NCBI GenBank assembly: GCA_018340375.1
Contig: JAFFJZ010000040.1
Coordinates: forward strand, 1 to 64,000
Source of the DNA: Gonatopus flavifemur
Taxonomy: Eukaryota > Arthropoda > Insecta > Hymenoptera > Dryinidae
Length of the DNA: 64,000 bases
Direction of reading: 5' to 3'
The translations under genes and the position numbers were made by a program. The first letter of the stretch is position 1. Every line of letters begins with the position of its first letter. The notes below the pieces were generated by a model. That model searched no databases. It was not told the origin of the DNA and saw only the letters and a program-made list of their open reading frames with translations. Positions 1,870 through 64,000 of the stretch are shown one piece after another.

Positions 1870-3659
1870 ACAGCTGAATAACTCTTCAGGGAATGGAGAG
1901 GGGAAAAAATTGTTCAGATAAAAGTTGTAGGGTTCGAAGGGGGCCGTAAGATGGTGACCTTGAATTTGACCTTGAGGTCAATTTTGGGCATAATCGATGG
2001 TCAAAGTATGTTTTTCCAAATGGAAAACCCTACGTTCAACCTCAGGAATGGAAAGAGCGGAAAATTTTACATCCGGAAATGTTAACATATCAGGTCATTT
2101 AGAGGTCATTTGAAGGTCAAAAAACCATTTTCTATGGATTTTCACGGAAAAGCCTCAAACCAGTTGTTTCTCTGACCAAAGTTATCAAACTTGAAGTGAA
2201 ACACCACTTTTCGACCTTTAATTTGACCTTGAGAACGATAATGAATGCCAAATTTGAAACAATTATTAAAAAATTATTTATTCTTCCAGTTCGTCGTTTT
2301 ATAATTACAGATGGCACAAATCCGTTGACGGGTAAGACACACTTATTGCAGGAGATGTTCGAATTGACCGCCATTTACTTCAATACATAACTCCAGCCGG
2401 CGTCGAAAGTTTCCGAAAACAGACTGAAAAACTTCCGGACGAATATTCGCAATTGCGTATCTGATGCGTTGTTGTAGATCCACAGGTGTTGTTGGTCGGT
2501 TGGTATGAACGACATTGTTCACGTAACCCCACAAATAAAAATCTAGAGGGGTGAGATCAGGAGATCTTGCCGGCCACAGTACAAATCCACCTCGACCAAT
2601 CCAACGATTGGGGAAAAGGATATTTAGATAATCCCTCACACATCGAGCAAAGTGTGGTGGTGCACCGTCTTGCTGATACCACATCCTCTGCCTAGTTGCT
2701 AATGTCACATCTTCCATGAGAACTGGTAATTCATTCTGTAAAAACTGTAGATAATTAGGACCGTTAACAGTTCCATAAAAAAAATACGGCCCAATAACTT
2801 GATTGTCTAGAATTCCACACCAAACATTTATACTCCACCGATGCTGATGATCAAGTTGTTGAGTCCAGTGCGGGTTCTGCGCTGACCAATAGTGGCTATT
2901 GTGACGATTTAACAAGCCAGTACTTTGAAACGTGGATTCATCACTGGAAAGAATATATCGAAAGAAATCGGGCGCTTCGTTCAACCTCTGTAAACCCCAA
3001 TGGCAAAAGTTAACCCGATTCTGCATATCTTGTTGAGATAATTCTTGGGTCAGTGTGATGTGGTACGGATGATATTGAGCAGCTTGTAGAATTCTGTCGA
3101 TCTCCAAACCGCTCTCTGTACAATTGTGACGCTCTTTGATACACTCCGCGACACTCACTCAAGATCATTAAAATATCAACACATTCGTTAGGTGAGTAAA
3201 CCATTTTGAACCCGCACTTACACCGTAAACGATGAAAACTTCTTAATGATCATTTTCGTACTGATATGAAGAATAAACTCGGAAGGTTAGTTCTGTTTAC
3301 TTTCAATTCAAGGTCCAAACGTGGGGTTTCACTTTAACTTTAATAACTTTGGTCAGAGAAACAACTCGTTCGAGGCTTCTCCGTGAAAATCCATAGAAAA
3401 TGGTTTTTTGACCTTCAAATGACCTCTAAATCACCTGATATGTTAACATATTCGGACGTATAATTTCCCGCTCTTTCCATTTCTGAGGTCGAACGTAGGG
3501 TTTTCCATTCGAAAAAACATACTTTGACCATCAATTATGCTCAAAATTGACCTCAAGGTCAAATTCGAGGTAACCATCTTATGGCCCCCTCCGAACCCTA
3601 CAACTTTTATCGGAACAATTTTTCTCCCCCTCCATTCCCTGAAGAGTTATTCAGCTGTC
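1870..3659 (-). mobile_element. Rosa-like DNA transposon B with ~360-bp terminal inverted repeats
   Basis: The arms, about 1870-2232 and 3300-3659, are reverse complements with moderate divergence. Both start at GACAGCTGAATAACTC and contain several TGACCTTGA-like blocks. Between them is a minus-strand transposase relic (2343-3204). Outside the right arm the sequence GGGACGCCCTGTATA resembles the usual Tc1/mariner outer end; the left side lacks it, so the left tip is lost. Inverted repeats this long are far beyond the ~30 bp of typical mariners. Confidence 0.8.
2343..3204 (-). pseudogene. DD41D transposase relic, copy B (internally deleted)
   Basis: Minus-strand transposase of element B. The start at 3204 gives the DUF4817-like N-terminus (VDILMILSECRG, YRERFGDR), which shifts out of frame. 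The long frame ending at 2343 contains the rest. Most of the central helix-turn-helix region present in copies A and C is missing, so an internal deletion of about 100 codons or a little less with a frame change fused the two parts. The catalytic core is intact: SSDESTF, QQDGAPPH and DLTPLDFYLWG, with 41 residues between the last two Asp. The C-terminus ends NGGQFEHLLQ as in the other copies. The catalytic half is intact but the DNA-binding half is gone, so it is probably inactive. Confidence 0.85.
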
Positions 3660-4267
3660 CTGTTTCAAATGGGACGCCCTGTATATATATATACAGAGTG
3701 TCCCAAATAAGAGAATACACGGAGATATCACGAAAAGGAGTGAGTGAAGAAGAGTGAGTAGAGAATGTCTCGAGTAAAAGTTGTTTGGTTCAAAGGGGGA
3801 ATGTTCGAGGTGATAACAGATTTCACCTTGGAATGAGTTTTCAAGGTCATTGGAGAGGTAACAACTTTTTTTTTGTATGGAACTCCCTTGTTTTTTCAGT
3901 GGAATCATATTCTACATGAAAAAACACAAAAATTCGACTCGGAACATTTTTCTGTCACCATCGTACTTTTGAAGATATGACCAACAGTGAACCGTCCCAG
4001 CGAGATGTGACAGCAAGGGTGTGTCCCTCTTATAAACTAGCGATGATGAATCAATGTTGAGAATAAAAAAACACGAAATCCAAAATTGACAGATTCTAGA
4101 ACGTCCGATTTATTGAATTCAACGTAAAGTAATATTAATATCAAATGTTTTCAAAAGATCTTCGAGCAGTTCTCAAATGTTCAAAATGTGCGCCTCGTCC
4201 CTGCGAACATAAATGAATTCTTCGCTCGAAATGACCCATCGTAGCTAACAAGATATTCCTTGGAATG

Positions 4268-4658
4268 TTGGCACACGTTTTTTTTTGTATGGAACTCCCT
4301 TGTTTTTTCAGTGAAATCATATTCTACATGAAAAAACACAAAAATTTGACTCGGAACATTTTTCTGTCACCATCGTACTTTCGAAGATATGGCCAACAGT
4401 GAACCCTCCCAGCGAGACGTGACAGGAAGAGTGAGTTTCTCTCACAAACTAGCGATGATGAATCAATATTGAGAACCACCGAACACGGAATCCAAAATTG
4501 ACAGATTTCAGAATGTACGATTTATTGAATTCAACGTAAAGTGATATCAATATCGAAGATTTTTAAAACGTCTCCGAGCAGTTTTCAGATGTTCAAAATG
4601 TAGGCCTTGTTCCTGCAGACATGAATGGATTCTTCGCTCGGAATCACTCATGGCACTG
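4268..4658. repeat. Second, diverged copy of the element C left arm
   Basis: This stretch repeats 3860-4255 in the same orientation, starting at the T-run before GTATGGAACTCCC and ending in the C-terminal transposase codons on the minus strand. Its last five bases are the left target duplication of Transib, so Transib inserted in this relic. Confidence 0.75.
4654..4658. repeat. Left 5-bp target-site duplication of Transib (CACTG)
   Basis: CACTG lies directly outside the left CACAGTG terminus and is repeated at 8514-8518 directly outside the right terminus. Transib elements are known to make 5-bp duplications. Confidence 0.9.
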
Positions 4659-4694
4659 CACAGTGGTACGAAAAGCCAAAAACGTGGCCAAAAT
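4659..4694 (+). repeat. Transib left terminal inverted repeat with RSS-like heptamer
   Basis: It begins with the exact heptamer CACAGTG. Ten bases further in is CCAAAAACG, which agrees with the RSS nonamer ACAAAAACC at seven of nine positions. The 10-bp spacing is not the 12 or 23 of true RSSs, so only the heptamer resemblance is strong. Confidence 0.85.
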
Positions 4695-5632
4695 TGAAAC
4701 AAACAAACATCATATTCGGGTTCTTTGAAGTAGCAGGTGGGCTACATTGATAGTTGGGCTATTGAAATCTAATCCTTAAAACGGTTTGCCATCAACACTG
4801 AAGTTGGCATAACAAAGGAAAGTTGACCTTGTTTTACGTGTCGTATGTCAGTTCCTACGAGCGACAAATCTAATCCTAATTCAATTTGAAATAATTACTT
4901 ATATGATCAAGTGATTGATCTAAATCAAAATGCATGCTGTTCCGGGGGGTATGTAGAGCATTTTCATCACACAGATCATTCAAAATACGGGATTTATCAA
5001 TCATCTATTTCCATTATTCTTTATAACAAATATTGCTCAAAATTGTCAATAAATACATTGAAAACCGAAGTGAAAAGTCACATATACCGCTATATTCCGC
5101 CAAATATCCGATTGGAACATAATCTATGATCAATTTGCTGTTAAATTGTGCAGAGAAAAGCTGCGCATAGCTGCGTTTTCGAATGTACGATATAAATGAA
5201 ATGAGAATTGCAATGAATCGATATTTACGCGTTTTGTCACAGTTGATCAAAAATCGAAAAATGTTGAGGATAATATGAGATGAAGTACATATGATGTTCA
5301 TAAGGTACACACAAATAACCCGCACAGGCAAACAGTTTGGAAAGAGTTCATAATGAGTTCATTTCGAATTTCCACACTCCCAAATGGATTAATTATTCAC
5401 TTTTTCCAAACAGTATGGCGTATAGGAAGGAAATGCAGGATAAGTGATGACAAAAGAGAAAGAATACCTGGGTACGACATACAAAATCAAAGTTGACGCT
5501 TTTCTCTTCTTGCGAAACTTATAATTGAAATGAGATGAATACAATGAATTGGATCAAATGAGTCCAAATGAATGAGTATATCAAAGAATTATTATTCCAT
5601 CCCGTGACAAATTAATTATTTTAATTTTAGGT

Positions 5633-7737
5633 TCAAGCGATGATATTGTACAATTCTCAAGGAAAGAAATTTTCGTTTTGATGGAAGACCATTTGAAGAG
5701 TAATTTGGGAATTATAATTGAAAATTTAGAAAACCGTCTATCTTCGCATACTGGTCGTTGTATCAAAGTCTATGACCATATGAAGCAAGTTATTGAAAAT
5801 TTATTCAATAAGATGAGACAGAAATATCAAGAGGCTCAGAGAAAGGATGAACATTTTTCGTAAAGAATAATGAATGGCTCAACGTTCCAGTACATTTTTC
5901 TGTTCAGAATGATACTAAGAAAACACCAAGAATGAATTCAGGTCGACCTTCTTCGGAATTCTCATCTCTAAGCGAACATTCAAAGCGAAGAAGAACTCAA
6001 GAAATTCGAACAAAATATGATGTTGATGAATTATCATACGCTACGGAAATGAGTCTTCGTTCTGCAGGTAAATCAGGCGTTTCAAAACTTCTGAAAGACA
6101 TTTCATCATCTAGCCCGTCCAAAGTGGAGAAATATATGGGAGTTGTAAAATCAGAATCTGCATCCACATTTACAAATGATCGAGCCTTGGCTTTATTTTT
6201 GGATATGGGAATATCAAGAAGAAAATATCAATTGATGAGAAATAGTGCAATGACAGTAGATTGTAAATTGTACCCACCGTATCAAGATATATTAAGTGCC
6301 AAACGTAAATGTTACCCCCCTATCAGTAACATTAAGGTTTCCGAATCAACAGCTGAAGTAGAATTGCAAGCTTTGTTGGATCACACAGTGAGACGCATTC
6401 TATTACTCCAACAGAATGATATGGCAGGACTGGATGCAAAAAATGTTATCCACATGAATTCCATTTGTAAATGGGGTTTTGATGGAACTTCGGGGCAAAG
6501 TGTGTATAAAATGAAATTTACCGATGAAACAGTTTCTGACGCAAGTTTACTTTTTACTTCGCTTGTGCCATTACAACTCGTATGCTTGGATGAGGAATCT
6601 AAGCAGGGAAAAGTTGTATGGTTCAATCCAAAACCTTCGTCTACTCGATTCTGCAGACCATTACGACTGCAATTCATTAACGAGAATGTGGATACATCTT
6701 TGAATGAAGTAACGCATTTTGAAAATCAAATACAATCGCTTGTTCCTTGCAAAATATTCATCGGAGAAAAAGAATTTTCCATTTCTTACAAATTAGTTAT
6801 GACGATGATCGACGGGAAAGTTTGTAACGCAGTAACCTCGACTAAATCAGCTCAACGTTGTTATCTGTGCAACGCAACATCAAAAGATTTTAATAATTTA
6901 GATTTAATTTTGAGCATGCCAGTCAAAACAGAAAACTTACAATATGGATTGTCGACACTTCATGCATGGATTCGGTGCTTCGAATGCTGTCTACATATAG
7001 GATACAAACTTGGTACAAAGAAGTGGCAAGCACGTGGCGAAGACAAGAAAGAAATCGAGATCCGGAAAACTGCCATCCAAAAAGGGTTTAAGAAAGAACT
7101 GGGACTTATTGTTGACGTTCCAAAGCAGGGTTTCGGGAGCAGCAACGATGGGAACACCGCTAGGCGTTTCTTCGAAAACTGAACAACATCTTCTATTATT
7201 ACAGGAGTTGATGTGGATTTGATCCAACGATTTCATGTTATACTACAAGTGATCTGAAGCGGGTATGAAATCAATGTTGCAAAGTTCCGGGAATATACAG
7301 CAGAAACAGGAAAATTATTTGTCCAACTATATCCCTGGTATTACATGCCAACTTGTGTCCACAAATTATTAATTCATGGACCCGAAATCATAGAACACGC
7401 GTTATTACCTGTAGGACAACTTTCCGAGGAGGCTCAAGAGTCAACTAATAAGTTGATAAGAAGATATCGCGAAGACTTCTCACGAAAGTGTTCCCGAGTC
7501 AAATGTATGGAAGATGTGTTTTTAAGACTCATGGCAACATCGGATCCTTTAATTTCTACTTTGCGAAAACAGCCACAAAAGAAAATTAAGATTTTATCTC
7601 AAGATGCAGTGACACTATTGATTTTACCAGCTACAATCTTGTCTTCCAAGGATGAGTTACATGAGAATTCATCTGATAGTTCAGATGAAGAACTACGGGA
7701 AGCAACAGATGATGATTCTGATCAGGAAAATGATTGA
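5633..7737 (+). pseudogene. Transib transposase (RAG1-core relative) with three inactivating lesions
   Basis: A DDE transposase that would nick and hairpin DNA next to its CACAGTG ends. About 700 codons are recognisable. The first part is open from about 5633, just after a possible splice acceptor TAATTTTAG, to about 5857. A one-base shift in the T-run near 5853-5857 moves to the frame of 5932, which continues to the TAA at 7737 except for TGA codons at 7180 and 7255. By comparison with RAG1 and Transib, the catalytic residues are Asp in KWGFDGTSGQS (6481), Asp in TMIDGKVCN (6811) and Glu in GQLSEEAQES (7426 or 7429). The zinc ligands are CYLC (6859-6870) and HKLLIH (7360-7377). The segment after the Glu (NKLIRRYRE, MEDVFL) follows the RAG1 C-terminal core pattern. 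The acidic tail is Ser/Asp/Glu-rich. All three catalytic residues survive; the breaks make the copy non-functional as read. Confidence 0.92.
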
Positions 7738-7929
7738 ATTTTCTTATTTGTTATCAATTTGTTATTGATCTTTGATCAATTAGTCTTTTGTCACTAATAT
7801 TATATTCATGAAATACTTTTCTATACGGATTGAATTATATTTGTAAATCCTTTTTATCGATTTATAATAATCTTGTTCAATGATTCAAATAAACGTCAAC
7901 TATTCGAATTTATAAATTCAGAAACGAAT

Positions 7930-8460
7930 TCTGAATAAGCAACCCCAAAAAACCCTGAGTACCGAATTTGGAGAAAATCTTATGATTTTTGCAATTTTCG
8001 TCAGGCATATTGGCTGCAATTTTGAATTTGGAGATTTTCACAACTGATTCCTAATCAGCGATCACAAAAACCCCTGGATACCGAGTTTGGAGAAAATTCG
8101 ATGATTTTTTTTAATTTTAATTCACCATATTGAATCCGCCATTCTGAATTTCAAAATTTTGCTAACGGATTCGTAATCAGTAACCCAAAGAACTCCTGGA
8201 TGCCACGTTTGAAGAGAATCGGATGATTTTTTTCATTTTCATCCACCATATTGGATCCGCCATTTTGAATTTGGGAATTTCGACAACGGATTCGGAATCA
8301 GCGACTCCAAAAACCCCTGTTTACCAAGTTTGAAGAAAATCCGATGATTTTTTCAATTTTCGTTCTCCATATTGGATCCGCCATTTTGAATTTCGGAATT
8401 TTGACAACGGATTCGTAATCAGTGACCCCGGAAATCCCCGAGTAACATTTTTCGAGCAAA
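7930..8460. repeat. ~122-bp tandem repeat in the Transib 3' region, about four copies
   Basis: Similar blocks (AATCAG, GACCCC, AAAACCCCTGG, then CCATATTGGATCCGCCATT) recur at about 8054, 8176, 8296 and 8418, a 122-bp period with substantial divergence. The same unit sequence appears in the arms of the foldback at 47.4-51.8 kb. Confidence 0.8.
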
Positions 8461-8477
8461 TTTGAGAACTCCTTATA

Positions 8478-8513
8478 GTTTTGACCACATTTTCGGCATT
8501 TCGTACCACTGTG
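8478..8513 (-). repeat. Transib right terminal inverted repeat
   Basis: The reverse complement of this stretch starts with CACAGTGGTACGAAATGCC and matches the left terminus over about 36 bp with a few changes. It is followed at 8514-8518 by CACTG. Confidence 0.9.
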
Positions 8514-8515
8514 CA

Positions 8516-8673
8516 CTGGTGAAAATCCGAAATCGAAGAAACCGGCTGTTGAAACAAATGAAGCGTGAAAAATGTCCCAACTCCCTCCTAAATTACGCTT
8601 GGGTGATCCTTTATCACGCTTAGATGACTCTTAGGTTACGGTCTCGTCGCGTTCAACGCTCCATTTTCACCAG
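8516..8673. repeat. Small element with CTGGTGAAAAT inverted ends
   Basis: CTGGTGAAAATCC at 8516 is matched by its near reverse complement CCATTTTCACCAG ending at 8673. The inner 130 bp show no symmetry or gene. The right copy of the Transib duplication overlaps its left tip, so Transib may have landed at this element's edge. A short match only. Confidence 0.4.
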
Positions 8674-9271: not shown

Positions 9272-10368
9272 ATGCCTCGAACTTATACCCCTAATGAGAT
9301 CGTCGATATTTTGATGATTCTGGGTGAATCTCGGCGTAATCATCGACAGGCCAGTGTGTTGTATGCGCAGAGATATTCTATGAGGATTCATCCCAACCCC
9401 GCGGTAATTAGAAAGATAGAGGACGCCGCTAGAAGACGGGGAATGAAATAGAAAAGGAACCGCATCAATTTGAATGATGATGATCCAAGCGTCGCTACAG
9501 TTTTGGCTGTAATAGCGTTAGATCCACATGACAGCATTCGAAACATTCAACGCCTGACTGGTATCCCACGAAATACGGTGCGCCGAATATTACGAATCCG
9601 AAAGTTCCATCCATATCATATCACCTTATGTCATGAATTGCAACCCAATGATCTTGAACGGCGGATGCACTTCTGCAAATGGGCTCAAGCTAGAATCGAA
9701 GAAAATCTTGAATATTTTAACAATGTCATGTTTAGCGACGAATGTACATTCCACAATACTGGTCTGCCCAATCGTCACAATTGTGATTACTGGGTCGAAC
9801 AAAATCCTCATTGGTATAGCCAGATTAATCACCAGCATCGCTGGAGCGTTACTGTTTGGTGTGGGATATTGAATGGAGATTTAATTGGGCCCTATTTCTT
9901 CGAAGGAAATGTGAACCAAGTCAACTACCTCAATTTATTACAAAATGAACTGCCCTTGATGCTAGATGAAGTTGACTTACAAACAAGGCAAAGGATGATG
10001 ATACTAGTACAACAAGATGGTGCTCCCTCTCATTACAGCCGTCTTGTACGACAGTGTTTGGACATGGAATATCACAACCGTTGGATTGGGAGAGGTAGTG
10101 GATTTCAGATATGGCCTCCTAGATCTCCGGACTTCACTCCGCTGGATTTTTTTTATGAGGATTTGTGAACAACAAAGTGTACGAACAAGCACCAACCACG
10201 AGACAAGACTCCATCGGACGTATCTGCAACACGTGTGCCAACATTCCAAGAAATATCTTGTTAGCTACGATGAGTCATTTCCAGCGAAGAATTAATTTAT
10301 GTTCGCAGGGACGAGGCGCACATTTTGAACATTTGGAAACTGCTCGAAGATCTTTTGAAAACCCTTGA
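9272..10368 (+). pseudogene. Rosa-like transposase relic, copy C
   Basis: Transposase of element C. The ATG at 9272 opens a DUF4817-like N-terminus (YTPNEIVDILMILGE). An in-frame TAG at 9449 interrupts it. The frame then runs from 9470 to 10168 through helix-turn-helix (NIQRLTGIPRNTVRRIL) and the catalytic blocks FSDECTF, QQDGAPSH and DFTPLDF. An indel in the T-run near 10148-10155 shifts the frame. The tail continues in the frame of 10165 to the stop at 10368 (QRRINLCSQGRGAHFEHL). Extra codons (RMMILVQQD, and a Ser in GRGSGF) widen the second-to-third Asp spacing to 42. Inactive. Confidence 0.85.
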
Positions 10369-10816
10369 TATTAATATTACTTTACGTTGAATTCAATAAA
10401 TCGGACGTTCTAGAATCTGTCAACTTTGGATTTCGTGTTCTTTTATTCTCAACATTGATTCATCATCGCTAGTTTATAAGAGGGACACACCCTTGCTGTC
10501 ACGTCTCGCCGGGACGGTTCACTGTTGGTCATATCTTCGAAAGTACGATGGTGACAGAAAAATGTTCCGAGTCGAATTTTTGTGTTTTTTCATGTAGAAT
10601 ATGATTTCACTGAAAAAACAAGGGAGTTCCATACAAAAAAAAGGTTGTTACCCCTCCAATGACCTTGAAAACTCATTCCAAGGTCAAATCTGTTATCACC
10701 TCGAACATTCCCCCTCTGAATCAAACAACTTTCACTCGAGACATTTTCTTCTTTACTCACTCCTTTTCGAGATATCCGCGTGTATTTTCTTATTTGGAAC
10801 ACCCTGTATATACACA

Positions 10817-30412: not shown

Positions 30413-30421
30413 CTTATTTTA
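30413..30421. repeat. Left 9-bp direct repeat flanking the Foldback-like locus
   Basis: CTTATTTTA here is repeated at 40777-40785, directly after the last repeat-unit bases (TTCGCCCAC) of the opposite arm. It is a candidate target duplication. A 9-bp duplication is what Drosophila Foldback elements make. Confidence 0.65.
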
Positions 30422-31212
30422 TTAGTTGTTCGGGAAAGTGCTTGGCGCAGGAATTCAATGATTCAGTGGGCGAATGTTCGATCCAATTTCTATCCAAGCA
30501 AGTTTGTCGAACGAATTTATTTTAATTCCTTCGAAGAGCCGATCGACGTTTCGGATTGATACGATCCTTTTTCAAGCTACAAAATTCTAATATAATCGTA
30601 GAGAAGAGAGAACGTGGTTGAATGAAGTATCATCCGGACCCATTGACTCGGATGTGTGTAGTTTTTATTGGTTGATTGGGAAAGTGCTTGGCGCAGGAAT
30701 CCAATGATTCAGTGAGCGAATGTTCGATCCAATTTCTACCCAAGCAGGTTAGTCGAACGAATTTATTTCAATTCCTTCGAAGAGCCGATCGACGTTTCGG
30801 ATTGATACGATCTTTTTTCAAGCTACAAAATTCTAATATAATCGTAGAGGAGAGAGAACGTGGTTGAATGAAGTATCATCCGGACCCATCGACTCGGATG
30901 TGGGTAGTTTTCATTGGTTGGTTGGGGAAGTGCTTGGCGCAGGAATTCAATGATTCAGTGGGCAAATGTTCAATCCAATTTCTATCCAAGCAAGTTTGTC
31001 GAACGAATTTATTTTACTTCCTTCGAGAAGCCAATCGACGTTTCGGATCGATACGATCCTTTTTCAAGATACAAAATTTTAATATAATCGTAGAGGAGAG
31101 AGAACGTGGTTGAATGAAGTATCATCCAGACCCATCGACTCGGATGTGTGTAGTTTCTATTAGTTGGTTAGGAAAGTGCTCGGCGCAGGAATTCAATGAT
31201 TCAGTGGGCGAA
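30422..31212 (+). repeat. 246-bp tandem repeat array, plus orientation
   Basis: About 3.2 units, each containing GGGAAAGTGCTTGGCGCAGG, CCAAGCAAGTTTGTCGAACG, GATCGACGTTTCGG followed by ATCGATACGATCC, and GAGAGAACGTGGTTGAATGA. The same unit is found inverted at 32645-32884 and 40163-40775, and again from 62843. The mariner at 31215 interrupts the array; it resumes at 32511. The 246-bp period is a multiple of three, so open frames span units; they are not taken as genes. Confidence 0.92.
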
Positions 31213-31214
31213 TA

Positions 31215-32508
31215 CGAGGGTGGATTGATAAGTTTCCGGCCTGACCAAGAAAAACAACGTTTTTAAGATTTTTTCTCTTTTTATTTCTCAACATAATCTC
31301 CTCCAAGGCTGATCCATTTCTCATAGCGGTGTTCTAGTCTAGTAATGCCATCTCTATAGACTGATTCATCAAGCTCCTCAAAATACCCATTTACAGCTTC
31401 GATTACTTCTTCATTGTCCGCAAATCTCTTACCGCCAAGCCATTTTTTGAGGTTAGGAAACAGATAATAGTCACTCGGGGCTAGGTCTGGAGAGTAGGGA
31501 GGGTGCGGCATTAATTCAAACTTCAGATCGTTGATTTTAGCCATCGCAACGATTGACGTGTGCGCTGGTGCGTTATCGTGATGAAACAAGATTTTTTTCT
31601 TCACCAGATGAGGTCGTTTAATTTTCACTTCGTGGCTCAAACGTTGTAATAAGTCTGCGTAGTATTGACCAGTGATAGTTTTACCCTTTTCAAGGTAATC
31701 AATGTATATAATACCTCTTGCATCCCAAAAAACAGTAGCCATAACCTTGTTCGCCGAAAAAATTGTTTTTGCCTTCTTTGGAGTTGGTTCCCCTGGTCCA
31801 ATCCACTGTTTAGACTGTTCTTTGGTTTCAGGAGTGTAGTGGTGGACCCAAGTTTCGTCAACGGTTACGAATCGACGCAAAAATTCGCTTGGATTACGCT
31901 TATACAACGCCAAATTGGCGGTAGAAATGTTCTTTCGAATCAATTTTTGGTCGACTGTTAGCAAACGCGGCACCCGTCTTGCACAGAGCTTTTCCATATA
32001 CAAATGTTGGTGCAAAATATTTTGTACACGTTCATATGACATCTTACAGGTCTCAGCTATCTCACGAACTTTTAATCTGCGATCTTCCAGCACTATTTGA
32101 TGGATTTTTTCGATCATATCTGGAGTTGTGACCTCAATGGGGCGTCCTGAGCGAGGCTCATCAGAAGTGCTCACACGACCCTTTTTAAACTCGGAAACCC
32201 ACTGCTTAACGGTTGAATATGATGGGGAGGATGTCCCCAGTGTTGAGTCCATCTCTTCTTTAATTTCCTCCGGCGTTAACCCCTTCAAATAAAAGTATTT
32301 GATGACAGCACGATTTTCCAGCTTTTCCATTTTTACGAAAAACACAGAGGCGTCTTGGTCAGCGTGCTCTCAAAACTAAACTAACATGGCGATCGGACTG
32401 AAACTATAGCTACAAGCTATCTAAGGATGGTACTATAGAACGCCACCTCAAGGTAGGCCTAGTGGCGCCATCTCTTGGTCAGGCCGGAAACTTATCAATC
32501 CACCCTCG
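31215..32508 (-). mobile_element. Complete mariner element, copy 1 (1,294 bp)
   Basis: The termini CGAGGGTGGATTGATAAGTT and the inverse ending CCACCCTCG are flanked by TA on both sides (31213-31214, 32509-32510), the standard mariner target. Inverted similarity covers at least GTTTCCGGCCTGACCAAGA. It lies inside a 246-bp unit, between AATGATTCAGTGGGCGAA and TTCGATCC. It contains one intact transposase gene. It has the same length as copy 2 at 46133. Confidence 0.95.
31281..32330 (-). CDS. Mariner transposase, irritans-like, intact 349-residue frame
   Basis: Catalyses cut-and-paste transposition of its own element at TA. The ATG at 32330 (MEKLENRAV) is chosen because the upstream codons lack another ATG. 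Residues 1-110 contain two helix-turn-helix regions ([32 protein letters not shown]). Catalytic Asp158 ([11 protein letters not shown]), Asp252 (HHDNAPAHT) and Asp287 ([12 protein letters not shown]) give DD34D. The family's inter-domain motif WVPHEL reads RVPRLL here: Arg119 replaces a Trp that copy 2 keeps. By eye it is closest to the irritans group. The frame is complete, but the Trp loss may reduce activity. Confidence 0.93.
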   Translation of the reverse strand: MEKLENRAVIKYFYLKGLTPEEIKEEMDSTLGTSSPSYSTVKQWVSEFKKGRVSTSDEPRSGRPIEVTTPDMIEKIHQIVLEDRRLKVREIAETCKMSYERVQNILHQHLYMEKLCARRVPRLLTVDQKLIRKNISTANLALYKRNPSEFLRRFVTVDETWVHHYTPETKEQSKQWIGPGEPTPKKAKTIFSANKVMATVFWDARGIIYIDYLEKGKTITGQYYADLLQRLSHEVKIKRPHLVKKKILFHHDNAPAHTSIVAMAKINDLKFELMPHPPYSPDLAPSDYYLFPNLKKWLGGKRFADNEEVIEAVNGYFEELDESVYRDGITRLEHRYEKWISLGGDYVEK

Positions 32509-32535
32509 TATTCGATCCAATTTCCATCCAAGCAA

Positions 32536-38700: not shown

Positions 38701-40162
38701 GTGCAATTCCCAAACTATTTGAAAGCTTGGTAACTGATATAATATCTCCACTGTTTTCTGGCGTCATTTCGGATATGCAACATGGTTTTATGCCCGGTCG
38801 TTCAACTATCACCAACTTGGCTATTCATTGTAACTATGTATCAACAGTTTTGGATGATAACGGTCAGGTAGATACAGTTTATACTGATCTCACAAAAGCC
38901 TTTGATACTGTAGATCATAATATTCTCTTATCTGAATTAAACCGCCTTGGTTTCCGTGGAAATATTCCTAATTGGATGAGAAGCTATCTTACGAATAGAA
39001 CTCAAACTGTTAAGGTTAAGAATTTCATCTCAAGGTCTATCAATGTACAATCAGGTGTTCCGCAAGGATCGCATTTAGGCCCATTGCTATTTATTTTGTT
39101 TATTAATGATATTGGTGACAATTTTAAGCCTGTTGAATTTTTAATTTTCGCGGATGATTTGAAATTATTCTCGAGAATCTTATCATACGCTGATGTCATC
39201 GCATTACAATCCGATTTACATAGGTTGGAATCTTGGTGCGCCTTGAATAAACTGCAACTAAATATATCGAAGTGTAAAGTAATGAGACTTTCTCGTATGA
39301 TGCAACCAGTCATGTTCTCATATGAATTGAACAGGTCTAGCTTAGAGGTTGTTCAGAGTATGCATGATTTAGGAATTATAATTGATTCTAAGTTCAATTT
39401 CACTATGCATTATCAAAATATGGTTAATACGGCTATGAAGGAATTCGGATTCCTGAAGCGTGTGTCTGAAGACTCCAAAGAACCCTCAACACCCTCGACA
39501 CTATACAATGCTCTTGTCAGACCTAATTTAGAATATGCGTCCCAGATCTGGTCGCCTCACCAAGATAAATATTGTAAACTGATTGAGAGAGTTCAGCACA
39601 AGTGTTTGCGTTTCTCAGCTTTTAAAAATCTCACTCCCATGGCCGTGTCCTTTCATGATTATGGACCGTTAATGAGATCGTTTGACATGACCACGCTTGG
39701 AGCTCGTAGGTTGGTTGACGATCTCGTTTTCATTTTCAAAATCATTAATGGTCAAATCAGCTGTCCTGAACTACTCTCTCTTTTAGACTTCAATGTACCA
39801 TCTAGAACTCTACGAAAGCCTTCGCTTTTCAATATTCCGATGTTCACTTCACATTATTTTTATTCTGATCCAGTCAACCGCATCTGTTGCTTGGCAAACT
39901 CATATAAAGATGATCTTGATTCCTTTCCGGGGTCAGTATCAATCTTTAAAAAATCGGCCCAGAAGGCTTTCTCTAAGAAGAGTGTGAGATCATAATTTAT
40001 GTATTATACTTCAAGGTTCGTGATAATTTACACCGTGTCTTATTGTGATTTACTTTTTAGTACTTTATTTGAAAATTTTCCTTTGTTAACCGCCATGATA
40101 TTGTTCACATACTTTTGTACCTAAAGGGCGTCTTAGCCCGTAAAATAAATCAAATCAAATCA

Positions 40163-40775
40163 AAATTTTGTATCTTGAAAAAGGATCGTATCGATCCGAA
40201 ACGTCGATCGGCTTTCCGAAGGAAGTGAAATAAATTCGTTCGACAAACTTGCTTGGATAGAAATTGGATCGAACATTCGCCTACTGAATCATTGAATTCC
40301 TGCGCCAAGCACTTTCCCAACCAATTAATGAAAACCACCCACATCCGACGCGATGGGTCCGGATGATACTCCATTCAACCACGTTCTCTCTCCTCTATGA
40401 TTATATTAAAATTTTGTATCTTGAAAAAGGATCGTATCGATCCGAAACGTCGATCGGCTTTTCGAAGGAAGTGAAATAAATTCGTTCGACAAACTTGCTT
40501 GGATAGAAATTGGATCGAACATTCGCCTACTGAATCATTGAATTCCTGCGCCAAGCACTTTCCCAACCAACTAACAAAAACTACCCACATCCGAGTCGAT
40601 GGGTCCGGATGACACTTCATTCAACCACGTTCTCTCTCCTCTACGATTATATCAAAATCTTGTCTCTTGAAAAAGGATCGTATCGATCCGAAACGTCGAT
40701 CGGCTCTTCGAAGGAAGTAAAATAAATTCGTTCGACAAACTTGCTTGGGTAGAAATTGGATCGAACATTCGCCCA
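40163..40775 (-). repeat. 246-bp repeat units, minus orientation, distal part of the right arm
   Basis: About 2.5 units continue the arm broken by the LINE. Units are very similar to each other. The array stops after TTCGCCCAC, where CTTATTTTA (40777-40785) follows. Confidence 0.92.
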
Positions 40776-40776
40776 C

Positions 40777-44668: not shown

Positions 44669-46130
44669 TGGATTTTGCAACAGGATATCTACAAAAGATC
44701 TAAATGATATGACAAAGATATAAATGGTATTCGAGCCATGATGTGGTACGAAAATTCATAATGAACACCCATTCATGCATCAATATGATTTCTCAAAAAA
44801 TCCATTGAAGTGGAGAAAATGTAAACTGTTACGAGAAACCGTAGATGATAGGAGGGCTAACATAAGTGTGTTGGGTTCTCTACAAATTTCCCGTAAAAAA
44901 AACTAATCCAAAAGTATTTGAGGTTGTTTCATGCACGGAGATAAATACAGGTCCAAAATTCAGTAATCTTGATTAACTGTAGAACACAACACTGGGGTAT
45001 TTTTCGCACCCTACGCGTCTTCAAAGTTGATCCAAATTGTAATTTTTGATCTTATGAATTTTGCTTGAAACTCATATTTTGCAATTTCTGCATCCTTTCT
45101 ACCTTTCTTGATCCACCTGTAATTTCACTCAAAGAATCTAGGGGAATCATCTTGTATCATTTTGTACATATTCATAATTTTGATTCAGGATGTCATATTT
45201 TTTTAGTATACCCGAAGTGCTCGGTGACTCACCTTATTTTCGAATGTTTTTCACACTCGCTATGATTCATCGATGTTTTTTCATGGACTTCAATTTCTAA
45301 TTACAAGTCATTATTCAATGATTGAATTCACATTCATCTTATGATAACCTTCAATAACCCATAATTCATCCATCCCGTATTGTCATGAATACCCTGTAAT
45401 TCATCCATCTCGTATTGTCATGAATAACATGTAATTAATCAATCTCGTATTGTCATGTGATTTTCTTATGTATTGTGATTCAGATCACAATAGAATCAAC
45501 TAACTCACATTTCGTATTATTTCGGATTATAAACTGTCACCGCTATATATAATAATAACATTGAACATTATCTATCAAGAGACGCGGTAGCGTCTCGACG
45601 CCAAGTACATGGAAAGAACCTGGAAGAAACATTTTCATAATTATTTCGAAAAAAGCTGAAAAGTCGTACGCTACTGTGTTTCTTCACGCGAACACCGATA
45701 TTTCGTATAGTCCAAAAATCTAAAATCACTATAAATCACCATACATTTGAATATCACGAATAACTGATCCACTTTTTCATGTAATTCGAATACGCACTTT
45801 CGATCAAGCACACTACGAACCTGATTAGTTAAAGCAATACTGAGATATAAACGTTTTTCAATTTCATGCGATCAAAATATTACGATTCTGATCCATCATC
45901 GTCATCTTTTTCCTAAACACCTCAGATCTTCGCTAGAATCAATTCAGGCCGGTTTTCAATTTTCGCTACCTTTTAGATAGGTTTCCAATGATAACCATGT
46001 CACTCTCTCTCTCTTTCTTTTTCCTAACAGCCACTAGCGTTCATTTTCCATTCCAGTATAGTATGGTATACGTTGTATACAAATAAACAAAGATCTGTCA
46101 ATGAATGATGAAATGCTGTGTGACAGGTTA
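44669..46130. repeat. Mostly featureless; 35-bp tandem repeat at 45362-45462
   Basis: TAATTCATCCATCTCGTATT plus GTCATGAAT recurs at 45362, 45397 and 45432. The rest (44669-45361, 45463-46130) shows no gene or repeat that I recognise. Confidence 0.6.
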
Positions 46131-46132
46131 TA

Positions 46133-47426
46133 CGAGGGTGGATTGATAAGTTTCCGGCCTGACCAAGAAAAACAACGTTCTTAAGAATTTTTTTTTTTTC
46201 ATTTCTCAACATAATCTCCTCCAAGGCTGATACATTTCTCATAGCGGTGTTCTAGTCTAGTAATGCCATCTCTATAGACTGATTCGTCAAGCTCCTCAAA
46301 ATACCCATTTACAGCTTCGATTACTCCTTCATTGTCCGCAAATCTCTTACCACCAAGCCATTTTTTGAGGTTAGGAAACAGATAATAGTCACTCGGGGCT
46401 AGGTCTGGAGAGTAGGGAATGTGCGGCATTAATTCAGACTTCAGATCGTTGATTCTAGCCATCGCAACGATTGACGTGTGCGCTGGTGCGTTATCGTGAT
46501 GAAACAAGATTTTTTTCTTCGCCAGATGAGGTCGTTTAATTTTCACTTCGTGGCTCAAACGTTGCAATAAGTCTGCGTAGTATTGACCAGTGATAGTTTT
46601 ACCCTTTTCAAGGTAATCAATGTATATAATACCTCTTGCATCCCAAAAAACAGTAGCCATAACCTTGTTCGCCGACAAAATTGTTTTTGCCTTCTTTGGA
46701 GTTGGTTCCCCTGGTCCAATCCACTGTTTAGACTGTTCTTTGGTTTCAGGAGTGTAGTGGTGGACCCAAGTTTCGTCAACGGTTACGAATCGACGCAAAA
46801 ATTCGCTTGGATTACGCTTATACAACGCCAAATTGGCGGTAGAAATGTTCTTTCGAATCAATTTTTGGTCGACTGTTAGCAAACGCGGCACCCATCTTGC
46901 ACAGAGCTTTTCCATATACAAATGTTGGTGCAAAATATTTTGTACACGTTCATATGACATCTTACAGGTCTCAGCTATCTCACGAACTTTTAATCTGCGA
47001 TCTTTCAGCACTATTTGATGGATTTTCCCGATCATATCTGGAGTTGTGACCTCAATGGGGCGTCCTGAGCGAGGCTCATCAGAGGTGCTCATACGACCCT
47101 TTTTAAACTCGGAAACCCACTGCTTAACGGTTGAATATGACGGGGAGGATGTCCCCAGTGTTGAGTCCATCTCTTCTTTAATTTCCTTCGGCGTTAACCC
47201 CTTCAAATGAAAGTATTTGATGACAGCACGATTTTCCAGCTTTTCCATTTTTACGAGAAACACAGAGGCGTCTTGGTCAGCGTGCTCTCAAAACTAAACT
47301 AACATGGCGATCGGACTGAAACTATAGCTACAAGCTATCTAAGGATGGTACTATAGAACGCCACCTCAAGGTAGGCCTAGTGGCACCATCTCTTGGTCAG
47401 GCCGGAAACTTATCAATCCACCCTCG
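46133..47426 (-). mobile_element. Complete mariner element, copy 2 (1,294 bp)
   Basis: Same termini as copy 1, flanked by TA at 46131-46132 and 47427-47428, and exactly the same length. It lies at the very edge of the foldback that begins at 47429. Confidence 0.95.
46199..47248 (-). CDS. Mariner transposase, intact 349-residue frame, copy 2
   Basis: Same protein as 31281-32330 with 13 residue differences. Catalytic Asp158, Asp252 and Asp287 and both helix-turn-helix regions are kept. The inter-domain motif keeps Trp119 (WVPRLL), which copy 1 has lost. Changes specific to this copy compared with copy 1 include Cys at 339 for Trp, Ile at 277 for Pro (MPHIPYS) and Gly at 308. The differences are scattered and the frame is unbroken, consistent with two recent insertions of one active family. 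Which copy is closer to the active ancestor cannot be told from two sequences. Confidence 0.93.
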
Positions 47427-48784
47427 TATATATGGAGCATTCTTTGTGAAATCGGCCACTCCCCCCCTGCACATCTCAATTTTGAAGATAGAGATCTGGG
47501 AGACCAATCAAAATTTTCGTTGAAGTGTCTACTTTTCATTGCCGTATGGTGTTTTTTGAACATGGCGGCCATTTCGCCAATATGGCGGCTGGAACGGAGG
47601 GGAAACGTGTTGAGAATAATCAAAACCAGTCCTAGGGATATGATACGTGGGTGTTGGATAGTTCTGTGGACTGGGGCATGTAATTCGAACCTCCCGGATT
47701 GATTGCATGCGGTTGGAATACTGAAATTGCAAATGGCGGATCCAATATGGCGGCCGAGAATTCAAAATTGCTTCGAATTTTTTTAAACATGTGGAGAGGG
47801 GGTTTTTCGGGTCGCTGATGACGAATCCGAACTCAGATTTCCGGAATTACAAATGGCGGATCTAATATGGCAGTCGGGAAAATTATAAATCTCTTGGATT
47901 TGTGCAAACATTGTCATACTGAGGTTTTCGGGGTTTTGGAACAAGAATCCAAACCCGGATTTCCGGAATTGCAAATGGCGAATCCAATATGGCGGCCGGA
48001 AATTGAAATATTGCTTCGAATTTTCTGAAACATTGGGGAAGGGGGTTTTTTGGGTCACTGATGACGAATTCAAACTCAGATTTCCGGAATTACGAATGGC
48101 GGATCCAATATGGCGGTCGGGAAAATTATAAATCTCTTGGATTTGTGCGAACATTGTCATACCGAGGTTTTTGAGGTCGCGGAACAAGAATCCAAATCCA
48201 GATTTCCGGAATTACGAATTGCGAATCCAATATGGCGGTCGGAAGAATTATAAATCGCTCGAATTCGTGGAAACATTGTCATACTGAGGTTTTTGGGGTC
48301 GTTGATCAAGAATCTGGACTTGGAATTCCTAAATAGCGAATGAGTAATCCAATACGGCGGTCGGAAGAATGATCATTGTCTCGAATTTGTGGAAACGATG
48401 TCATACTGAGATTTTTGGGGTCGCTGATAGACATTTGAATCCGGATTCTCGGAATTATGAATGGAAAATTCGATATGACGGTCTGGATATGAGGAATCAT
48501 CCGTCCTCCGACGTAAATCTTTGTTCCGAGGAAGTTCTGGTCGTTCATTATGAACCTGAGGTCAGATTCCGGAAACCAGAACGGACCCACCACGTTCAAA
48601 GATCCGCCAGCACATTTGATATGATGGAAACGAATATTATAATAATTTCAGGAATTATTTGGGGTCTGGTCACACGAATTCACAAACTTTCAATAGACTC
48701 CCTCCCAATGAAACTCCTTGCAAATCTTCCTCGAATCAAACCATGAATACTGCTGGTTTTTGACTTGTGAATTTGTGTATTCAG

Positions 48785-49600
48785 GCTCCAAGCTGTCGGC
48801 AAGGTCTCTCACAAACAATTTCACTGAGGCAGTCTTTGTAATTAGTTAGTGGCTTTTGTGTATTCAACGTCAGCTTTTGAATATCAATTGCATCCAACAT
48901 CAATTTCGGATTTTGATGTATTGTGCAAACACGAACTGAATGTAGTCCACAAGCCCCAGGGAGTATGCAATTTTTTGGTCTCAGTTAAGCGAACGCGCTG
49001 AAGCAGATAATATGTTCTTGGTGAGACTGATTGAATACGGTATAAAGTTCTTTCAAACCCATCAGTAAGAGACGTTTCTGTTTCAGCGTTCGCTCTCCAT
49101 CAATTTTCACAGGAACGACATCTTTCGATGCAGGCATTATCCTGCTATTCATGTCACTCGTATAAAATACTATCGGGTGAAATGCCAGCTTTCATCCTCA
49201 ATTCCTTTGATTTGTCGGCCGAATATCGCGTTGTAACAAATTCTTGGGCGATTTTCCTTGCACTCCAAGATGATGGGACGATAGTTGAAATTTGTAATTT
49301 CAATGGATTGTTGGGTTCCAAGGTTGGAAATTTCTCCTTGAGCTCATCCAGCATTCCTTCCCGTTCAATTTCTCTGTTCGTGCGTGTATCATTGAGACCT
49401 TCGTGTGTCTCATTCTCCAATTGAACATCCATTCTCATAGAACTCTCAATACTACAAATATTTTCACCGCTATCATTTGATTCATGAACCACATCGTCAT
49501 TTTGTAATTTGTCCGATGAACCCTGTTTTATACATGCAGCACAAATCCTCGAATTCGCGCATAAGTCAGGAAATTGCTGTCACATATCCTCCGATATCTT
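48785..49600 (-). pseudogene. Transposon-borne gene of unassigned family, inverted piece
   Basis: On the minus strand the open frame 49154-49492 reads VVHESNDSGENICSIESSM, then ISTIVPSSWSARKIAQEFV. After a frameshift near 49145 the coding sense continues to about 48785 with blocks IMPASKDVVPVKIDGERT, QKRLLLMGLKELY, LRPKNCILPGACGLHSVRVC and TIHQNPKLMLDAIDI, with stops at the FA*LRPK and LGA*IHK points. I remember similar uncharacterised transposon-type proteins (LRPKxCIL...HSVxVCTIHQN) from insects and cnidarians, but cannot name the superfamily. WSARKIAQEF may be a helix-turn-helix. The N-terminal segment is repeated inverted at 50060-50200. Confidence 0.6.
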
Positions 49601-50039
49601 CCGTAAATTTCTACCGACGTACCCGGCAGTTTCGAACGGATTTGCACATCGGTCCGTTCGAAGAATTCGGGGCATCGTGTATTAGATGATCAGATAAATG
49701 GGATGAAAATATGCGAACTCCTAGTACGATTTTATGAGTTAAAACACAAAAACTTTGAAGTTTAAACGTCGCGAATATTCATAAAGTAACAATGTAAAAC
49801 GATAAATAACAGGAGACGAGGAAAACAATTGACGTTACAATGAAACCACAGGAAATTACGTGCAGACATTACTGAACAATACACTGTCAGTTGATAAGAA
49901 TCGATTTCACGCATTCATTCGTTTATTTTCAGCTGATTTATTCGACATTCTGATATACGAAGCCGCGAATTCTTCAAAAAAGCTAATGATTTATTCACTC
50001 AAAACAGCCGCACACAATGGTAGAAATTCGCGAAAGATA

Positions 50040-50608
50040 TCAGAGGTTAATTTACAGGAATTTCCTGACTTATACGCGAATTCAAGAATTTAAGCTGCAT
50101 GTATGGAAGAAGGTTCATCGTACAAATTACGAGATGACAAGGTGGTTGATGAATTGAATGATAGAGGTGGAAATATTGAAAGTATTGAGAGTTCGATTGT
50201 CCAGGAGTTTCGCAGTTCTCGGGGAAATTACATGATCTACTGGAGAATTCTTCGATCACAGGTATTCAATATTCAGTTTGGACGGCAACGGATCGTTCAA
50301 CTCTACAAACAGTAATGATGAAAATTGATAATTTTATACAACAATTGTGCAATAGACTGACAATACTCAAACCTCATTCATTCATGTCTGAGCGACAGAA
50401 TCATTCCATCCAGGAACGGAAACACAATCTTCGCGATGGCGAAGCACCGATTACGTTTGATTTTTTGAGGATTAGGTATATGTTAGCCAGGATGCTTCAA
50501 AAGCATTTGAATTTCGATACCGAACAATGCACCATGTTTCCTGCTATTTATTATCACGAAGACGCGATGTTGAGCACAAGAATTACGTATTCTGATCAGA
50601 AAGTCTAA
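50040..50608 (+). pseudogene. Same unassigned transposon gene, plus-strand piece
   Basis: 50047-50200 duplicates the N-terminal part of the minus-strand piece (KLRDDKVVDELNDRGGNIES against KLQNDDVVHESNDSGENICS). After a gap, 50315-50608 reads LKPHSFMSERQNHSIQERKH, then GEAPITFDFLRIRYMLARML, then FDTEQCTMFPAIYYHEDAML. In the family as I remember it, this is the region HSFxxxxQxxxxxxxKxNLxxxExLxxxDFxENY, so the Asp of TFDF may be catalytic, but the following ENY is not kept. The gene is truncated and broken. Confidence 0.55.
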
Positions 50609-51806
50609 AACACAACACCTTTGCTGTTTATGCTATTCAGACTTTGTTAATTTCTCAAATTCAACAGAATGTGAGAAGAATGAATAGGATTATCCGTACC
50701 AGAGACAGAGCGAAGCAGTACTTCAAAAATAAATTCCAGGATGAGTATGATCAGGCCCCGAATAATTCTTGAAATCGATATAATATTTGATCCCATCATA
50801 TTGAATCCAGAACTCGCTCGGAACAAAGATTCACGTCAGAGGATGGATGATTCCTCATATCCAGACCGTCATATCGAATCTTCCATTCATAATTCCGAGA
50901 ATCCGGATTCGAATGTCTATCAGCGACCCCAAAAATCTCAGTATGACATTGTTTCCACAAATTCAAGAGATTGATAATTCTTCTGACCGCCATATTGGAT
51001 TACCCATTCACTATTCCGGAAATTCGAGTCCGGATTCTTGATCAGCGACCTCAAAAACTTCAGTATGTCAATGTTTCCGCAAATTTAAGCGATTTATGAT
51101 TCTTTCGAGCGCGATATCTGATCCGCTATTTGTAATTCTGGAAATCTGAGTTTGGATTCGTCATCAGCGACCCGAAAAACCCCCTCCTGCAATGTTTCAG
51201 AAAATTCGAAACAATATTCCAATCTCCAGCTGCCATATTGGATTCGCTATTTGCAATTCCAGAAATCTGGGTTTGGATTCTTGTTCCAAGACCCCAAAAA
51301 CCTCAGTATGACAATGTTCGTATAAATCCGAGAGATTCATAATTTTTCCGACCGCCATATTGGATCCGCCATTCGTAATTCCGGAAATCTGAGTTCGGAT
51401 TTGTCATCAGCGACCCGAAAAACCCCCTTTCCACATGTTCAAAAAAATCCGAAGCAAGTTTGAATTTCCGGCCGCCATATTGGATCCGCCATTTGCAATT
51501 TCAGTATTCCAACCGCATGCAATTGATCCGGGAGGCTCGAATCACATGCCCCAATCCACAGAACTATCCAACACCCACGTATTATATTTCTAGGACTGGT
51601 TCTGATCATTCTCAACACGGTTCCCCTTCGTTTCAGCCGCCATATTGGCGAAATGGCCGCCACGTCCAAAAAACACCATACGGCAATGAAAAGTAGACAC
51701 TTCAACGAAAATTTTGATTGGTCTCCGAGATCTCTATCTTCAAAATCGAGGTGTGCAGGGGGGGGGGGGGTGGCCGATTTCACAAAGAATGCCCCATATA
51801 TATATA

Positions 51807-62522: not shown

Positions 62523-62842
62523 GAAGACAAAAAATCCCAGAGACTCGAGTCAGGAGGAGAAATATCTTAGGGAATGAATTGTATTTCAACTTCGTTTTAC
62601 CTTTTCGGAGAAAAATTCCAATGAAGTTGCCACAGAAAAGAATTCCTTAAAAAGGCTGCGTATTTACAACATTTAATATTTAGTTCCTGTACAGTCATAG
62701 AGAAGATATCGAGGACCTGTGTGGAATCTTCTTAATCGTTCTCAAAAGTTCTATACCCAATGATTTGGTACACTGAGAAGAAAATTCATCTGCGTTGAAT
62801 AAATATTTATTTGTCCTATGATTCCAATAAATATATCATATA

Positions 62843-64000
62843 TTTCTATCCAAGCAAGTTTGTCAAACGAATTTATTTTACTTCCTTCGAGAAGCCGATC
62901 GACGTTTCGGATCGATACGATCCTTTTTCAAGATACAAAATTCTAATATAATCGTAGAGGAGAGAGAACGTGGTCGAATGAAGTATCATCCGGACCCATC
63001 GACTCGGATGTGGTTAGTTTTCATTAGTTGGTTGGGAAAGTGCTTGGCGCAGGAATTCAATGATTCAGTGGGCGAATGTTCGATCCAATTTCTACCCAAG
63101 CAGGTTAGTCGAACGAATTTATTTTACTTCCTTCGAAGAGCCGATCGACGTTTCGGATCGATACGATCCTTTTTCAAGATACAAAATTCTAATATAATCG
63201 TAGAGGAGAGAGAACGTGGTCGAATGAAGTATCATCCGGACCCATCGACTCGGATGTGGTTAGTTTTTATTAGTTGGTTGGGAAAGTGCTTGGCGCAGGA
63301 ATTCAATGATTCAGTGGGCGAATGTTCGATCCAATTTCTACCCAAGCAGGTTAGTCGAACGAATTTATTTTACTTCCTTCGAAGAGCCGATCGACGTTTC
63401 GGATCGATACGATCCTTTTTCAAGATACAAAATTCTAATATAATCGTAGAGGAGAGAGAACGTGGTCGAATGAAGTATCATCCGGACCCATCGACTCGGA
63501 TGTGGTTAGTTTTTATTAGTTGGTTGGGAAAGTGCTTGGCGCAGGAATTCAATGATTCAGTGAGCGAATGTTCGATCCAATTTCTACCCAAGCAGGTTAG
63601 TCGAACGAATTTATTTTACTTCCTTCGAAGAGCCGATCGACGTTTCGGATCGATACGATCCTTTTTCAAGCTACAAAATTCTAATATAATCGTAGACGAG
63701 AGAGAACGTGGTTGAATGGAGTATCATCCGGACCCATCGACTCGGATGTGGGTAGTTTTCATTAGTTGGTTGGGAAAGTGCTTGGCGCAGGAATTCAATG
63801 ATTCAGTAGGCGAATGTTCGATCCAATTTCTATCCAAGCGAGTTTGTCGAACGAATCGGATGTGGGTAGTTTTTAATTCTGGTTGGGATAGATGGGTCCG
63901 GATGAATTTTCTTTCAACAACGTTTTTTCACCTCTACGATTATATCATTTTTGTATCTTGATAAAGGATCGTATCGATCCGAAACGTCGATCGGCTATTC
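62843..64000. mobile_element. Second Foldback-like copy, left arm and core, running off the window
   Basis: About four plus-oriented 246-bp units from 62843 to 63852. Then the core junction (AATTCTGGTTGGGATAGATG, about 63842-63960) leads to the start of a minus unit (GGATCGTATCGATCCGAAAC) at the window end. Units are almost identical to one another and to the 30.4-40.8 kb locus. The left edge falls at a different unit phase from the first locus. The frame 62978-63715 spans three units without a stop. Confidence 0.85.

What the first reader, a model, noticed from the sequence alone, without database searches (positions are those of the whole stretch)
4659..8513. Full-length Transib with exact RSS heptamer ends and a nearly complete RAG1-like transposase
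Both ends are CACAGTG, identical to the V(D)J signal heptamer, and CACTG is duplicated outside each end. All three putative catalytic residues (6481, 6811, 7426 or 7429) and the CxxC/HxxxxH zinc ligands are present. Only one T-run frameshift and two TGA codons break the frame. Transib is the established relative of the RAG1 core, so this is an informative insect copy and its family may have intact members.
Basis: partly seen in the sequence, partly recalled or inferred. Interest (0 to 1): 0.8.

Follow-up and report, generated by a model that had tools for sequence, protein, structure and literature searches.

The report
Dead insect Transib transposon, recently moved
This is a complete but broken copy of a known jumping-gene type whose enzyme is related to the one that cuts vertebrate antibody genes; sister copies in the same genome are intact, and the dead copy seems to have been moved recently by an enzyme made elsewhere.

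Summary
The finding is real. Window 4659-8513 is a complete Transib: 35-bp terminal inverted repeats (31/35 identical) starting CACAGTG, a 5-bp CACTG target duplication, and a HzTransib-like transposase (E=1.6e-125). One correction: the Glu equivalent to RAG1 E962 is at 7438-7440, not 7426/7429.

I found the missing first exon (4930-4948; intron 4949-5630). The host genome (636 Mb) holds at least 13 further copies at 92-100% protein identity. Start codon and splice sites are kept in 14 of 14; 4 of 14 encode an uninterrupted 708-aa protein. Perfect 5-bp duplications flank 12 of 13 copies with both ends. Both TGA codons occur only in the window copy and L015, which differ by no substitution yet lie in unrelated DNA with different duplications. 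So an already dead copy moved recently, most likely using transposase from intact relatives. The T-run frameshift may be an assembly error.

The N-terminal region resembles the RAG1 nonamer-binding domain, as published. Less expected: 121-bp tandem arrays by the 3' end recur in 13 of 13 sampled copies of divergent Transib lineages.

Verdict: new member of a known kind.

The parts
4654..4658 (.). left target-site duplication CACTG
   Evidence: other family copies carry their own 5-bp duplications
4659..4693 (+). 5' terminal inverted repeat, heptamer CACAGTG at 4659-4665; A-rich YCAAAA stretch 22 bp after the heptamer (5 of 9 to the RSS nonamer, recalled sequence)
4930..4948 (+). transposase exon 1 (MHAVPG + 1 base)
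   Evidence: only in-frame ATG-to-donor candidate scoring 6 of 9; three ant proteins begin MxxVPGGS-like (P0018, P0044, P0119); ATG kept in 14 of 14 copies
4949..5630 (+). intron, GTATGT...TTTTAG, phase 1
   Evidence: GT and AG kept in 14 of 14 copies; no transcript evidence
5631..7737 (+). transposase exon 2, broken here by a T-run frameshift (5854-5858) and TGA at 7180 and 7255; stop at 7735-7737
5941..6126 (+). region resembling the RAG1 nonamer-binding domain, GRP motif at 5941-5949
   Evidence: weak scores, see text; published for Transibs in PMC9435367
6481..6483 (+). catalytic Asp (RAG1 D600 / HzTransib D126)
6811..6813 (+). catalytic Asp (RAG1 D708 / HzTransib D225)
6859..6870 (+). CxxC zinc ligands
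   Evidence: 120 of 120 homologues keep both Cys
7360..7377 (+). HxxxxH zinc ligands (RAG1 H937/H942 by alignment)
7438..7440 (+). catalytic Glu (RAG1 E962 / HzTransib E436)
7888..7893 (+). AATAAA, possible polyadenylation signal
   Evidence: pattern only
7914..8468 (+). 121-bp tandem array, about four units, beside the 3' end
   Evidence: part of the element: present in 12 of 12 other copies with both ends, with fewer units in some
8479..8513 (-). 3' terminal inverted repeat, heptamer at 8507-8513
8514..8518 (.). right target-site duplication CACTG

Best explanation
The element is a full-length cut-and-paste DNA transposon of the Transib superfamily. Shown here: matching termini, a 5-bp target duplication, a two-exon transposase gene with the RAG1-type DDE and zinc residues, and at least 13 close relatives in the same genome. 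The window copy cannot make the enzyme, because two stop codons precede the zinc histidines and the catalytic Glu. Inferred: intact relatives supply transposase that pairs the two CACAGTG ends, cuts by nick and hairpin as HzTransib and RAG do (recalled and PMC6941560 passages), and inserts the element with a 5-bp stagger. Because L015 carries the same two stops, with no substitution between the two copies and a different insertion site, the copy was already dead when it last moved, so it was moved in trans.
Against: No transcript, protein or excision evidence. An empty site was not shown: the joined flanks found no matching uninterrupted site in the window and no genome-wide flank search was made. 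Gene conversion between two older copies could also make window and L015 identical. L020 has mismatched duplications (CGCCA/TGTCG). The window duplication lacks the CG found in 17 of 19 perfect duplications.
Confidence: 0.93

Rival explanations
1. The window copy is itself autonomous and its defects are assembly errors.
For: Closest copy pairs differ mainly by single-base indels in A or T runs (window/L015: 0 substitutions, 6 indels; L013/L018: 0 substitutions, 3 gap columns), as long-read errors do. The run at 5854-5858 has the window's length in 3 of 14 copies.
Against: The two TGA codons are substitutions and occur in both window and L015.
Confidence: 0.04
2. Window and L015 became identical by gene conversion, or both were copied from a dead progenitor by a route other than transposition.
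For: Same contig, about 107 kb apart.
Against: Each has its own perfect 5-bp duplication and unrelated flanks, and identity runs the full element length.
Confidence: 0.12
3. The locus is a domesticated RAG1-like host gene rather than a transposon.
For: RAG1-type residues are conserved.
Against: Broken frame, terminal repeats, target duplications and multicopy dispersal.
Confidence: 0.01
4. The 121-bp arrays are a host minisatellite that inserted into several Transib families by chance, without any role in transposition.
For: Arrays also lie outside recognised Transibs: window 47717-48238 and 50987-51508, the L020 flank, L039 497-832. 2699 first-look candidates genome-wide, of which 40 were scored.
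Against: Found in 13 of 13 sampled copies of other Transib lineages, 3' of the ORF; in 8 of 8 family-2 copies at both ends in inverted orientation; in 0 of 6 random 8-kb stretches.
Confidence: 0.55

Closest known systems
HzTransib (Helicoverpa zea), PDB 6pqn/6pqx
   Same: Transposase core aligns end to end, 43% identity over 474 residues, same DDE and zinc residues
   Different: The solved chain has no counterpart to model residues 31-103 (nonamer-binding-like region); window copy is broken; about 120-residue longer N terminus by the spliced model
Insect Transib proteins in public databases (Osmia, Nylanderia, Temnothorax, Leptopilina, Gryllus, Sitophilus, Rhagoletis and others)
   Same: Same architecture; 1007 hits at E<=0.001 of 7982 scored candidates, 120 listed
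   Different: Best identity 58% (P0004, P0005), so no close published relative was seen; nearest in the tree of 44 is unnamed P0005 (support 100/99)
RAG1 core and RAG-like (ProtoRAG) transposons
   Different: One gene only; no RAG2-like open frame seen in the element; 18% identity
Subgroup II Transibs of Tao et al. 2022 (PMC9435367, main text read)
   Same: HzTransib-like core; both termini give the same best spacing, 22 bp, to an A-rich stretch; GRP motif of a nonamer-binding-like domain
   Different: No tree with Subgroup I members was built here

Membership tests
Transib superfamily | transposase homologous to HzTransib | tested here: met
Transib superfamily | terminal inverted repeats beginning with an RSS-like CAC heptamer | tested here: met
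   CACAGTG at both ends
Transib superfamily | 5-bp target-site duplication | tested here: met
   12 of 13 family copies with both ends, L020 excepted; 7 of 7 family-2 copies with both exact ends, L034 3' end not found
Transib superfamily | DDE catalytic triad and C2H2-type zinc ligands | tested here: met
   codons present at 6481, 6811, 7438 and 6859, 6868, 7360, 7375, though the window frame is interrupted
Transib superfamily | single RAG1-like gene without RAG2-like gene | tested here: met
   only transposase frames among the longer open frames inside the element; no domain search for RAG2 was run on the short ones
Transib superfamily | cleavage and transposition activity | not testable with these tools
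   needs biochemistry
RAG-like (RAGL) transposon | RAG1L plus RAG2L gene pair | tested here: not met
   no second long open frame between the terminal repeats
Subgroup II Transib (PMC9435367) | loss of the alpha11-alpha12 region, CTT2 tail | tested here: inconclusive
   collinear with HzTransib; no Subgroup I member compared
RAG1 nonamer-binding domain | GRP motif followed by a three-helix dimerisation fold | tested here: inconclusive

The most novel reading that the evidence does not exclude
The 121-bp tandem arrays are a shared cis-acting component of this genome's Transibs. They lie just inside the 3' terminal repeat in the window family and, inverted, near both ends in the commonest scored family. 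They match at 76-88% DNA identity between two families whose proteins are only about 48% identical and whose coding DNA gave no blastn match. If so, the arrays are either exchanged between Transib families or held by selection, perhaps as binding sites that help pair the ends or recruit a host factor.
Probability: 0.3. Interest if true: 0.5.

Novelty: new member of a known kind. Interest (0 to 1): 0.3.

Why it matters
Transibs are the accepted relatives of RAG1, but few genomes have been described with several Transib families that look recently active. Here one genome has a family with intact and freshly moved dead copies and a second with many near-identical open copies, all ending in the exact V(D)J heptamer. 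That makes questions on heptamer use, the nonamer-binding-like domain and movement in trans testable in an insect. The recurring 121-bp arrays are an unexplained feature that could be a transposition signal or a passenger repeat. For the window itself, the result mainly confirms a known kind of element.

Tried and rejected
Empty site: the left flank (3866-4651) is a 412-bp repeat whose other copies, including an inverted one at 10228-10812, diverge at the insertion point, so joining the flanks showed no pre-insertion site. Viral contigs: no relative. Rfam: no match. Promoter scan: nothing. A classic 12/23 spacer arrangement is not seen: the best nonamer match is 7 of 9 at spacer 10 in the 5' end only, 5 of 9 at the same place in the 3' end. 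The full profile of 33 Transibs gave RAG1 matches only outside the nonamer-binding region, against the fold hint. The 47.4-51.8 kb inverted pair shares the array but no Transib terminal repeat or protein was found there. L009 was first thought a gene fusion; it is a copy cut at element position 2662 and followed by unidentified sequence; it looked gag-like to me, but Pfam found no family. L047 holds only element positions 2680-3855. My scripts labelled the T run 5852-5856; it is 5854-5858.

Full report
Observation. The element spans 4659-8513. Both ends start with CACAGTG and both flanks carry CACTG. The terminal 35 bases agree at 31 positions in inverted orientation; scanning every pair of positions at that spacing, the next best was 21 of 35, and 126 of 60,125 positions had a 5-bp direct match. 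The heptamer alone is common (10 in the window). No second Transib protein region was found in the window (tblastn with five homologues).

Protein. The frame 5851-7737, read with TGA as Trp, matches HzTransib 6pqn (E=1.6e-125) and 1007 of 7982 scored database candidates (120 listed, best identity 58%). The Pfam RAG1 model scores 34.1 bits (cut-off 25). The third catalytic residue is not at 7426 or 7429. RAG1 E962 and HzTransib E436, with D600/D708 and D126/D225, are given in PMC6941560 (passages); the alignments put E962 and E436 on the Glu at 7438-7440, and the two Asp pairs fit with the same offset. Among 120 homologues that Glu is kept in 119. Against 108 nearly invariant family columns the window protein differs at 3, one being a stop codon, so the coding region has decayed little.

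Gene structure. A search for an upstream exon in phase with the acceptor at 5630 gave one best candidate, ATG 4930 to donor 4949, encoding MHAVPG (score 6 of 9, next best 5). Joined to exon 2 it reads MHAVPGGSSDD. Of the 31 homologues in which the following motif was located, three annotated ant proteins begin MDCVPGGS, MDALPGGS and MYPIPGGS. The ATG, GT and AG are kept in 14 of 14 genome copies. This is sequence evidence only.

Family in the genome. The one successful protein search scored 95 of 1879 candidates in a 636-Mb assembly of 402 contigs, so counts are lower bounds. Fourteen rows including the window are at 92-100% identity; of the other 81, 77 are at 47-49% and four at 50, 51, 52 and 66%. 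I fetched all 13 others of the window family. Both ends were found in 12; 11 of these and the window have a perfect 5-bp duplication, L020 does not, and L009 lacks the 3' end. Outside the arrays the copies are 97.7-98.4% identical to the window, except L015 at 100%. Four copies give an uninterrupted 708-aa protein; L019 shows no stop in the stretch examined and L009 none before its break; the other eight, window included, are interrupted.

Movement of a dead copy. Both TGA codons are in the window copy and L015 only (2 of 14). The two differ by six single-base indels at A or T runs and by no substitution. L015 lies about 107 kb away, has the duplication CCTCG, and shows no similarity to the window's flanks. 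Flanks of family copies are unrelated to each other except for one repeat between L012 and L019. The simplest reading is that a copy that could no longer encode a full transposase was moved by one supplied in trans. The excess of indels over substitutions suggests assembly error at homopolymers, so the window's T-run frameshift (same run length in 3 of 14 copies) may not be real.

Second family. Eight copies of a family about 48% identical in protein (L029-L034, L039, L040) match L029 at 97.8-98.8% over 4.6-5.1 kb. Their ends read CACAGTGGGGCCAAATGCC; seven of the eight have both ends exactly and all seven have perfect 5-bp duplications. Of the 19 perfect duplications in both families 17 contain CG, in line with the GC-rich target preference that I recall for Transibs; the window's CACTG does not.

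The 121-bp array. About four units lie between the gene and the 3' terminal repeat. It belongs to the element: 12 of 12 other copies with both ends have it, in several with fewer units (element length about 3735 against 3855). Matches were also found 3' of the ORF in 13 of 13 sampled copies of other lineages (L022, L028-L034, L036-L040; L022 has only about one unit), and in 8 of 8 family-2 copies at both ends in inverted orientation. Identity to the window array is 76-88% in family 2, although coding DNA of that family gave no blastn match. None of six arbitrarily chosen 8-kb stretches has one, but arrays occur outside recognised Transibs at four places. A tree of 113 units mixes positions of the window family and family 2 while L036-L038 units group apart, with many weak supports. 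A genome search saw 2699 candidates and scored 40, too few to tell whether arrays are Transib-specific.

Comparison and novelty. By every feature tested this is a Transib. It is not a RAG-like transposon, since no RAG2-like frame was seen. A search for papers on Transib with subterminal or minisatellite repeats (passages of PMC9659126) found none describing such arrays, but the library lacks most subscription papers and Repbase was not available. Kapitonov and Jurka 2005 was not held.

Noticed in passing
window 31212-32511 and 46130-47429: Two mariner copies 97.9% identical, each with an open 362-aa transposase frame; the first sits in a 246-bp tandem array.
   Followed up: partly
window 47427-51802: Inverted pair of arms (79-89% identical) built of 122-bp tandem repeats related to the Transib array, facing as in family 2, but without a recognised Transib end or protein.
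   Followed up: partly
window 30417-31213, 40159-40776, 62842-63856: 246-bp tandem repeats 93-97% identical at three places, one with a long open frame of no clear meaning.
   Followed up: no
window 3866-4651 and 10228-10812: 412-bp repeat beside the Transib with an inverted copy 94% identical; Tc1-like open frame at 9452-10168 nearby.
   Followed up: partly
L035 (G000:C370), L047 (G000:C323): Two family copies broken at almost the same place, element 2662 and 2680, one keeping the 5' part with an 879-aa read-on frame, the other the 3' part.
   Followed up: partly
   Followed up: no
L020: Mismatched duplications (CGCCA/TGTCG) and a second 121-bp-type array about 50 bp outside its 5' end.
   Followed up: no
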